From Butyrivibrio sp. (GTDB lineage Bacteria; Bacillota; Clostridia; Lachnospirales; Lachnospiraceae): a stretch of DNA of 64,000 nucleotides. Below are positions 43,077-53,440 of the stretch, in pieces (the first letter of the stretch is position 1; each line of letters starts with the position of its first letter). The notes below the pieces were generated by a model. That model worked only from the letters and a program-made list of their open reading frames with translations. It was not told the origin of the DNA and searched no databases. A program made the translations under genes and the position numbers. Location of the stretch: contig NZ_JAFRGN010000036.1 in the NCBI RefSeq assembly GCF_017433805.1, positions 173,812-237,811 of the forward strand, given 5' to 3'.

Positions 43077-43150
43077 GGCGAGATAGCTCAGCTGGCTAGA
43101 GCACGCGGTTCATACCCGCGGTGTCGAGGGTTCGAATCCCCCTCTCGCTA
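43077..43150 (+). tRNA. tRNA-Met (anticodon CAU), elongator type
   Basis: 74 bases that fold as a cloverleaf: acceptor GGCGAGA/TCTCGCT, D-stem GCTC/GAGC, anticodon stem CGCGG/CCGCG with loop TTCATAC (CAU at 43111-43113), T-arm with TTCGAAT. The anticodon stem lacks the three G:C pairs of initiators and pair 1:72 is G:U, not a C:A mismatch, so it is elongator Met; a k2C-modified Ile tRNA is less likely. The T-stem GAGGG/CCCCC has an A:C mismatch at its second pair. CCA is not encoded. Confidence 0.93.
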
Positions 43151-43152
43151 CT

Positions 43153-43243: not shown

Positions 43244-43858
43244 TCACGCATTCATAGGGAATTTGAGGTCTCTGATTGCCATGGAATAATCTGAACGTAT
43301 TCCTCTAAAACGAGCTTCACTTTCAAGAATATTGATTCCCTCTTTAAGTGTTTCAGCACGTCCATCATCGATATATTCCATAAGCTTTTCTATATACGCA
43401 ATTGTTACATACTTATCTGGCATAAAGCCATAAATTTCAGGATGATCTGCCACATGTCCCTTCTTCTGCTCTTCGATCTTACCTAGAATTCTCTTTGTAT
43501 CAGCTGTAAGAAGCTCTAATTTCTGATCCACTCTTTTTCTTGCAATAAATGGAAGAGCTATTCCGAACATGATCGCAATTATAACCATACCCAACAGATC
43601 GGCGTCATATTTATTATTGGTATAGTATAAGAACGCTGGCAAAAAAACTGCAGAATACCCGAGGCAGAACCACATAAATATAGTTACGATTCCTCCAGCA
43701 GCCTTTTTAGCGAGCTTTTCTGATTTCTTATTGTAATCGGCTATTATAGAAGCTTCATATACCTCAAGATTTCTATAGGTACCACCACCTAAAAAATCAC
43801 GCGCATTCTTGAGCGCAACACGAAGTTCTTCTTTATTCATCTCAACACCACTTTTCAT
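43244..43858 (-). CDS. Two-TM membrane protein of unknown function, under c-di-GMP riboswitch
   Basis: 204 residues. A basic cytoplasmic N-terminal helix region (about 1-50) is followed by two membrane segments (about 53-75 and 82-103) and a charged, helical C-terminal domain of about 100 residues. I do not recognise a family. The start at 43858 has AAAGGAG 8 bases upstream; the longer in-frame opening runs into the riboswitch terminator and cannot be used. It is the only gene of its transcript, with a promoter at 44050-44079, so c-di-GMP control appears to be its main input. A role in envelope, adhesion or motility is only inference. Confidence 0.75.
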   Translation of the reverse strand: MKSGVEMNKEELRVALKNARDFLGGGTYRNLEVYEASIIADYNKKSEKLAKKAAGGIVTIFMWFCLGYSAVFLPAFLYYTNNKYDADLLGMVIIAIMFGIALPFIARKRVDQKLELLTADTKRILGKIEEQKKGHVADHPEIYGFMPDKYVTIAYIEKLMEYIDDGRAETLKEGINILESEARFRGIRSDYSMAIRDLKFPMNA

Positions 43859-43893
43859 CTTACAAACTCCTTTTTGACCAATGAAAAAACAGC

Positions 43894-43925
43894 AAAAAAA
43901 ATAGTAGCGAATACGCATCGCTACT
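43894..43925 (-). terminator. Expression-platform terminator of the c-di-GMP riboswitch
   Basis: Minus strand AGTAGCGA / TCGCTACT perfect stem with a 7-base loop, then TATTTTTTTT. It lies 10 bases after the aptamer and 36 bases before the start codon, between the aptamer and its gene. Confidence 0.85.
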
Positions 43926-43934
43926 AGTTAAAAT

Positions 43935-43998
43935 GCAACTGGCTATCCTCTCGGACCCTATAGCTTTGCGTCATTAGATTACTCTAATTTTGCCCTTA
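43935..43998 (-). ncRNA. c-di-GMP-I (GEMM) riboswitch aptamer
   Basis: Read on the minus strand, the segment has GGCAAA, a hairpin ATTAGA-GTAA-TCTAAT with a GNRA tetraloop (43988-43973), and the core GACGCAAAGCTATAGGGTC. A short second hairpin TCC-GAGA-GGA follows, then ATAGCCAGTTGC. This order and these invariant blocks are those of the class I c-di-GMP aptamer; the tetraloop and its receptor are both visible. The second hairpin is unusually short. An intrinsic terminator follows at once, so ligand binding should switch transcription read-through. Confidence 0.9.
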
Positions 43999-44049
43999 AT
44001 ATGTAATTCGGAAACTAAATTCCACTAAAATGTTTCCACAGCATTGTTC

Positions 44050-44079
44050 ATTATACTACTGAGCAACTGTTATATGCAA
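44050..44079 (-). promoter_or_regulatory. Promoter of the c-di-GMP riboswitch transcript
   Basis: Minus strand TTGCAT (44079-44074), 18 bases, TATAAT (44055-44050). The leader then runs about 45 bases, with a GGAAAC/GTTTCC pairing, before the aptamer. Confidence 0.65.
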
Positions 44080-53267: not shown

Positions 53268-53440
53268 TGAGCGATATTACGGATTGCTCCGCTTCGCTCA
53301 CGCAATCCTACGTCCATTCGGAAATCGACCTACTCACTTCGTTCGTATGTCTTCTTTCCTCATGTCCGTTATGTCATCGAGGTTTCAAGTATATGCATGC
53401 GAGCATGCATACTTGAAGCTTCTCTTCCATATATCGCTCA
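53268..53440. repeat. Nested inverted repeats between argS and the MATE gene
   Basis: Outer arms TGAGCGATAT (53268-53277) and ATATCGCTCA (53431-53440) are perfect and enclose about 150 bases; the right arm ends at the argS stop codon. Inside are GGATTGC / GCAATCC (53281-53287, 53302-53308) and a strong hairpin TCAAGTATATGCATGC / GCATGCATACTTGA (53385-53416) with a 2-base bulge. No long T run follows, so it is not a plain terminator. Confidence 0.6.

What the first reader, a model, noticed from the sequence alone, without database searches (positions are those of the whole stretch)
43894..44079. c-di-GMP-I riboswitch with terminator driving a single gene
The minus strand shows a complete GEMM core (GGCAAA, GNRA hairpin, GACGCAAAGCTATAGGG, ATAGCCAGTTGC), preceded by a consensus promoter and followed by an intrinsic terminator 10 bases later. 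The second hairpin is very short. The window also encodes two c-di-GMP enzymes, so signal and receiver sit together.
Basis: partly seen in the sequence, partly recalled or inferred. Interest (0 to 1): 0.75.

Follow-up and report, generated by a model that had tools for sequence, protein, structure and literature searches.

The report
c-di-GMP riboswitch, predicted off-switch
A bacterium of the rumen genus Butyrivibrio (inferred) carries what is by sequence a genuine c-di-GMP-sensing RNA switch in front of one uncharacterised membrane-protein gene; the RNA is of a known kind and probably shuts the gene off when c-di-GMP is high.

Summary
The minus strand at 43931-44004 matches Rfam c-di-GMP-I (RF01051) over the full model at 57.9 bits (cut-off 35, E 9.9e-9). 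A terminator follows at 43926-43902, then one 204-codon gene. The promoter has a perfect -10 but only 3 of 6 at -35. "Signal and receiver together" carries little weight: the genome has 49 GGDEF and 20 EAL matches.

The short second hairpin marks a receptor-less (type II) aptamer, common in the survey. Added here: the likely switching logic. The terminator's 5' strand (43924-43913) can pair with the ligand-pocket strand (43971-43960) as an antiterminator. Selected by aptamer alone, 15 of 16 loci with this P3 carry the strand, against 5 of 93 with other P3. No covariation supports it. In the window it persists although five of its bases lie in the terminator loop. Predicted: an OFF switch, as in C. 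difficile Cd1.

The target is an uncharacterised, probably two-helix membrane protein; full-length homologues occur in 3 of 79 genomes of the genus, and all four copies lie downstream of this riboswitch subtype. New member of a known kind; binding and polarity untested.

The parts
44074..44079 (-). possible -35 (TTGCAT, 3 of 6 to TTGACA, 18-nt spacer)
   Evidence: sequence; not listed by the promoter scan
44050..44055 (-). -10 hexamer TATAAT (6 of 6); start site inferred near 44043
   Evidence: sequence; start site is inference
44009..44038 (-). small hairpin (7 bp) in the leader ahead of the aptamer
   Evidence: minimum-energy fold
43931..44004 (-). c-di-GMP-I aptamer (RF01051), short-P3 / receptor-less type
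   Evidence: 57.9 bits, gathering 35, E 9.9e-9, full-length model match
43973..43988 (-). P2 hairpin with GUAA (GNRA) tetraloop
   Evidence: alignment
43994..43994 (-). base taken as equivalent to Vc2 G20 (G, not A): c-di-GMP-type rather than cGAMP-type
   Evidence: Rfam alignment; Vc2 numbering partly recalled, the names G20/A47/C92 seen in a passage of PMC11218506
43960..43971 (-). pocket strand ACGCAAAGCUAU, predicted antiterminator partner
   Evidence: duplex and growing-transcript folds; aptamer-only test
43941..43964 (-). short P3 region, capped by GUCC-GAGA-GGAU
   Evidence: alignment, fold
43902..43926 (-). intrinsic terminator hairpin, 9 bp, loop UGCGUAU
43913..43924 (-). switching strand GUAGCGAUGCGU (terminator 5' arm plus five bases of its loop), complementary to 43971-43960
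43894..43901 (-). U-tract (8 T) of the terminator
43867..43870 (-). ribosome-binding site GGAG, 8 nt before the start codon, outside the terminator
   Evidence: sequence
43244..43858 (-). target gene, 204 codons, predicted two-helix membrane protein of unknown function
   Evidence: start supported by the N-terminus MKxGxEM shared by 4 of 4 aligned homologues; hydropathy peaks 53-78 and 84-110 in the window protein (the same simple measure gave one segment for L038 and an unclear pattern for L040 and L039); no Pfam or NCBIfam match over the curated cut-off, no PADLOC match

Best explanation
A c-di-GMP-I (GEMM-I, receptor-less type II) riboswitch that ends transcription of a single gene when c-di-GMP is high (OFF switch). 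Without c-di-GMP, the switching strand of the nascent RNA (43924-43913) pairs with the pocket strand of the aptamer (43971-43960). This both opens the binding pocket and hides the 5' arm of the terminator, so the polymerase reads on into the gene. With c-di-GMP bound, the pocket strand is locked in the aptamer, the switching strand pairs with its 3' arm instead, and transcription stops at the U-tract. Aptamer and terminator do not overlap, so both can exist together, as in Cd1 of Clostridioides difficile. Shown by sequence and computation: aptamer identity, terminator, complementarity and its spread, energy order of the folds. Inferred: ligand binding, direction of control, start site.
For: RF01051 match at 57.9 bits. 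In growing-transcript folds the antiterminator is complete at ends 43912 to 43906 and the terminator replaces it from 43903 on. Antiterminator against leaving the strand single: -8.8 kcal/mol here, -3.9 to -10.2 over the 16 rows of alignment A2; letting the 3' arm pair: a further -3.9 here, 0.0 to -8.4 over the 16. Unbiased test, loci chosen by the aptamer alone: of 16 distinct loci with this P3 (window included), 15 carry GCG[AG][TC]GCG within 60 nt downstream and 15 reach at least 9 of 12 pairs with their pocket strand (shuffles of the same downstream DNA: 30.7%), 8 reach 10 (shuffles 5.5%); of 93 with other P3, 5 carry the motif and 31 reach 9 (shuffles 29.8%). The 1 of 16 without it is the degenerate upstream copy in L050. 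In the window 43917-43913 lie in the terminator loop, where the terminator does not need them, yet still match the pocket strand. TAGCG[AG][TC]GCG occurs at 17 distinct places in the 993,027 bases held (overlapping loci, mostly fetched around aptamers): 16 within 100 nt after an aptamer core, the last (L055) after an aptamer with a variant core. Class I switches of C. difficile are reported as transcriptional OFF switches (passages of PMC11477304, and PMC9262584).
Against: No covariation: 0 pairs with changes on both sides; little can be expected where ligand binding fixes the aptamer strand, but it is not positive support. The 95.0% of paired cells in A2 (shifted registers 6.9 to 46.6%) is partly circular, because the 16 rows of A2 were picked with a pattern that contains GCG..GCG. 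In the two rows where the aptamer base of the last pair is A (L037, L053) the partner is G, so that pair is lost, not compensated. The loci are related, so they are not independent. In single-locus duplex shuffles 8 of 500 do as well for the window; over the 12 loci of this platform among the 37 tested the count runs from 0 to 84 of 500. In 1 of 16 loci (L050) the antiterminator is not the minimum at that length, and in 2 (L040 minus strand, L057) the full-length minimum keeps it. Energies ignore the ligand, tertiary contacts and kinetics.
Confidence: 0.77

Rival explanations
1. ON switch: the terminator is the default fold and c-di-GMP binding, by stabilising helices at the end of the aptamer, favours read-through.
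For: The full-length minimum contains the terminator without any ligand. An ON design exists in the related pilM switch (PMC9262584, passages). The antiterminator has no covariation support.
Against: Aptamer and terminator share no bases, so binding cannot directly break the terminator; the shared strand links the pocket with the terminator's 5' arm instead. Class I switches in C. difficile are reported OFF.
Confidence: 0.14
2. The aptamer binds another cyclic dinucleotide, such as cGAMP, rather than c-di-GMP.
For: 14 of 110 distinct aptamers in the fetched loci have A at the G20-equivalent position, so such variants exist in the genus.
Against: The window's base at that position is G (43994). 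The genome has 49 GGDEF matches, so c-di-GMP signalling is likely; whether any of these enzymes makes cGAMP was not looked at.
Confidence: 0.04
3. Decayed or non-switching element: an aptamer with a constitutive terminator that insulates the gene or ends read-through from the upstream chemoreceptor and cinA-type genes.
For: The upstream genes run in the same direction, and the scan listed no terminator between cinA (44088) and the riboswitch on the minus strand.
Against: Aptamer core, terminator and switching strand are all intact and match the relatives. A degenerate copy looks different (L050 upstream copy, 42.7 bits; no switching strand).
Confidence: 0.05

Closest known systems
c-di-GMP-I riboswitch (GEMM-I, Rfam RF01051), type II without tetraloop receptor
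   Same: Aptamer core; P2 loop GUAA fits GYRA; P3 too short for the receptor
   Different: Relatives with the same P3 mostly have a GAAA loop (13 of 16; GUAA 2, AAAA 1), so the type rests on the missing receptor; target gene and details of the expression platform differ
Cd1 riboswitch of Clostridioides difficile (class I)
   Same: Terminator and aptamer can coexist and compete with an antiterminator; reported OFF
   Different: In Cd1 the antiterminator pairs with the 3' part of the aptamer (G86, C87; passage of PMC9262584). Here it is predicted to pair with the inner strand between P2 and P3
Sister platform ahead of chemoreceptor genes of about 577 aa in the genus (own genome C14:69128-69203, locus L042)
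   Same: Short P3; in several loci the terminator 5' arm or loop carries a strand (GGGACATG) complementary to the aptamer; the L042 gene has an MCP signalling domain
   Different: Partner is the 3' strand of P3 (CAUGUC), not the pocket strand; support by shuffles is uneven

Membership tests
c-di-GMP-I riboswitch (RF01051) | Score above the curated covariance-model cut-off | tested here: met
   57.9 bits against 35, model 1-87 of 87
c-di-GMP-I riboswitch (RF01051) | Conserved core: GGCAAA, P2 GNRA hairpin, GACGCAAAG, 3' strand ending GUUGC | tested here: met
c-di-GMP-I riboswitch (RF01051) | G at the ligand-contacting position equivalent to Vc2 G20 | tested here: met
   G at 43994; position placed from the Rfam alignment, Vc2 numbering partly recalled
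c-di-GMP-I riboswitch (RF01051) | Binds c-di-GMP and changes shape | not testable with these tools
   needs in-line probing or calorimetry
c-di-GMP-I type II (no tetraloop receptor) | GYRA-type P2 loop and no receptor in P3 | tested here: met
   GUAA loop at 43982-43979; P3 is 24 nt from GCTA to AGCC, receptor judged absent by length and by eye. Definition from a passage of PMC11218506
Transcriptional OFF switch | Intrinsic terminator compatible with the folded aptamer | tested here: met
   terminator 43926-43902 begins after the aptamer
Transcriptional OFF switch | Antiterminator competing with the ligand-bound aptamer | tested here: inconclusive
   computed and subtype-specific, but no covariation and no experiment
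Transcriptional OFF switch | Ligand raises termination | not testable with these tools
   needs in vitro transcription
3',3'-cGAMP (GEMM-Ib) riboswitch | A at the G20-equivalent position | tested here: not met
   G at 43994

The most novel reading that the evidence does not exclude
The target belongs to an undescribed set of c-di-GMP-repressed membrane proteins in Butyrivibrio (two-helix proteins with a C-terminal 'RADxLKEAxNL' element, in one species beside DUF2752 and zinc-ribbon/DUF898 genes and, across a divergent riboswitch pair, a Sel1/Hsp70-like set), and its switch works by an antiterminator that occupies the ligand pocket itself.
Probability: 0.33. Interest if true: 0.55.

Novelty: new member of a known kind. 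Interest (0 to 1): 0.4.

Why it matters
It is an ordinary riboswitch class with an unusually readable platform: a set of related loci makes the switching strand visible by comparison alone. It also points at a small uncharacterised membrane-protein family as a c-di-GMP output in rumen bacteria, testable by simple reporter and deletion work. Paper searches joining c-di-GMP riboswitch terms with Butyrivibrio or Lachnospiraceae gave 1 paper (on LytTR systems), none and 39 of which 10 were listed (none of the 10 with the word Butyrivibrio); from these listings I saw no study of such a switch in these bacteria in the held library.

Tried and rejected
Family of the target: the 4 members scanned singly gave nothing over the curated cut-offs of Pfam and NCBIfam (best E 0.01 and 0.0077), nothing in PADLOC and only E 0.025 or worse in PHROGs; a profile search of solved structures gave at best E 0.037; plasmid and phage records gave no match; a single-protein scan of genome contigs gave none.

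Empty site between cinA and the PAP2 gene: 29 other cinA loci of about 3 kb were read (of 66 other genomes with a cinA match). In two (L190, L197) cinA and PAP2 are neighbours without the riboswitch gene, but cinA is turned round there, so this is not a clean empty site; dropped.

Local signal-receiver pairing: not supported. Covariation test of the antiterminator: none found.

Faulty computations, not used: the 'no-AT' column (the constraint emptied the fold; replaced); the control group (13 of its 93 rows wrongly scored 0; replaced).

Selection and rows left out: alignment A2 (16 rows, window included) was picked with a pattern that contains part of the switching strand, so its conservation there is partly by construction; one search was run to remove this. 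A2 leaves out L047 and L054/L055 of the 18 distinct platforms listed. The survey kept 99 distinct aptamers, 110 with a looser pattern and identical 60-mers merged, 109; 92 of the 99 had a readable P3 end, 41 of these with P3 up to 26 nt, 37 of the 41 with a terminator by the simple search. The genus riboswitch list was cut by the tool, so the survey is not complete.

Full report
What is there. On the minus strand a c-di-GMP-I aptamer lies at 44004-43931 (57.9 bits, gathering score 35, E 9.9e-9, full model). A terminator hairpin follows at 43926-43902 with eight T. The gene starts at 43858, with GGAG 8 nt before the start codon, and ends at 43244. The next feature downstream is a + strand tRNA-Met (43077-43151), so the gene appears to stand alone. 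Upstream in the same direction are a cinA-type gene and a chemoreceptor gene, and the scan listed no terminator in between on that strand; read-through from them would also meet the riboswitch. The -10 is perfect; the -35 is poor (3 of 6).

Host. The window's own genome (3.45 Mb, 74 contigs) is one of 79 that the tool groups in its genus. The own genome has three c-di-GMP-I aptamers; 64 of 79 genomes have at least one over the cut-off. It also has 49 GGDEF matches (48 over the cut-off) and 20 EAL matches, so the two enzymes in the window say nothing special about this locus.

The short second hairpin. P3 is 24 nt from GCTA to AGCC, is capped by GAGA, and has no room for the tetraloop receptor. 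A passage of PMC11218506 defines type I (GNRA loop plus receptor) and type II (GYRA loop, no receptor). The window's GUAA loop fits type II; among the 16 loci with this P3 the loop is GAAA in 13, GUAA in 2 and AAAA in 1, so the label rests mainly on the missing receptor. Of 92 surveyed aptamers with a readable P3 end, 41 have P3 of up to 26 nt. The short hairpin is a known subtype, not an oddity.

Switching logic. The terminators of a subset of these aptamers share the strand AUAGCGAUGCGU, complementary to the pocket strand ACGCAAAGCUAU (10 pairs around two mismatches). In the window the strand is GUAGCGAUGCGU at 43924-43913, the partner 43971-43960. Folding the growing transcript gives the aptamer hairpins, then the antiterminator (complete at ends 43912 to 43906), then the terminator. 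Over the 16 rows of alignment A2 the antiterminator gains 3.9 to 10.2 kcal/mol (8.8 here), and pairing of the 3' arm gains a further 0.0 to 8.4 (3.9 here). In A2 the helix is formed in 95.0% of cells against 6.9 to 46.6% in shifted registers, but those rows were picked with part of the strand in the pattern, so this figure is partly circular. I therefore repeated the test with loci chosen by the aptamer alone. Of 16 with this P3, 15 carry the strand motif and 15 reach at least 9 of 12 pairs (shuffles 30.7%), 8 reach 10 (shuffles 5.5%). Of 93 with other P3, 5 carry the motif and 31 reach 9 pairs (shuffles 29.8%), which is the chance level. The single exception among the 16 is the degenerate upstream copy in L050. 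The window gives a natural check: its terminator has a different stem and UGCGU (43917-43913) falls in the loop, yet it is kept. The motif TAGCG[AG][TC]GCG occurs at 17 distinct places in the 993,027 bases held, 16 after an aptamer core by the script and the last after one with a variant core (L055); most of these bases were fetched around aptamers, so this control is modest.

Against this: no covariation at all, related loci, only moderate single-locus shuffle results (8 of 500 here; 0 to 84 of 500 over the 12 loci of this platform among 37 tested), exceptions in the folds (1 of 16 at the intermediate length, 2 of 16 at full length), and energies that ignore ligand and kinetics. I put the OFF model at 0.77; I lowered it slightly from a first 0.8 because of the circular selection. 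Reported OFF behaviour of class I switches in C. difficile helps (passages of PMC11477304, and PMC9262584). In Cd1 the switching strand pairs with the 3' part of the aptamer; here it pairs with the inner pocket strand. The base that I take as A47 of Vc2 (43967; numbering partly recalled) would be paired in the antiterminator, so antiterminator and ligand binding would exclude each other.

Target gene. A 204-aa protein with two hydrophobic segments (53-78, 84-110). Single-sequence search finds it in 3 of 79 genomes of the genus, four copies. A profile search gives 8 of 79 genomes and 11 matches; the 7 extra ones are partial and mostly weak (E 9.2e-9 to 8.9e-4). In 397 genomes drawn from the family, the window's own among them, the only other match is weak and partial. 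All four full copies lie downstream of an aptamer with this P3 and strand: directly in three (window, L038, L039), as third gene after DUF2752 and zinc-ribbon/DUF898 genes in L040. The N-terminus MKxGxEM is shared by 4 of 4 while codons differ, which supports the start at 43858. The C-terminal part, with 'RADxLKEAxNL', aligns by profile with larger membrane and zinc-ribbon proteins (hhalign E 2.4e-11). One of these, 229 aa with a zinc ribbon in L057 (E 1.9e-7; Zn_Ribbon_1), lies behind the same kind of platform. No family library names the target. Other genes behind the 18 platforms include a Sel1/Hsp70 set and, by N-terminus only, predicted lipoproteins, transporter-like proteins and a large secreted protein; for L047 no gene could be read.

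Verdict. A genuine and ordinary c-di-GMP-I riboswitch by sequence, type II, predicted OFF, with an uncharacterised membrane-protein target. Papers: PMC11218506, PMC9262584, PMC6274999, PMC8835794 and PMC11477304 were seen as passages; all others as search listings only (two searches listed nothing).

Noticed in passing
L050 (both aptamers), L053, L073, L110, L111, L116, L120, L124, L128, L129, L130, L132, L135; also L055: 14 of 110 distinct aptamers have A at the position that I take as Vc2 G20, a cGAMP-type (GEMM-Ib) signature; L055 shows it too. Possible cGAMP or mixed-ligand switches in these bacteria; 'G20A' in GEMM-I with cGAMP seen in passages of PMC6274999.
   Followed up: partly
L050 2723-2796 and 2975-3048 (-): Two short-P3 c-di-GMP-I aptamers in tandem (record titled B. 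proteoclasticus P18); the upstream one is degenerate (42.7 bits, GACACAAAG core) and lacks the switching strand.
   Followed up: partly
L040 6626-6699 (-) and 6903-6976 (+): Divergent pair of c-di-GMP-I riboswitches (record titled Butyrivibrio sp. YAB3001): one side Sel1-repeat protein, 107-aa protein and Hsp70-like protein, the other DUF2752, zinc-ribbon/DUF898 and a homologue of the window's target.
   Followed up: partly
L042 and similar loci: Second platform type: P3 GGGACTTTAACATGTC with a terminator arm or loop carrying GGGACATG in several loci, ahead of proteins of about 577 aa; the one scanned (L042) is a chemoreceptor by Pfam.
   Followed up: partly
L041 3886-3973 (+) and other long-P3 loci: Long-P3 aptamers ahead of a small protein without Pfam match, a signal peptidase (Peptidase_S26 in L041) and a larger protein; no terminator seen directly after the aptamer.
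   Followed up: partly
window 53272-53436 (-): Clostridiales-1 RNA (RF01699), 85.7 bits.
   Followed up: no
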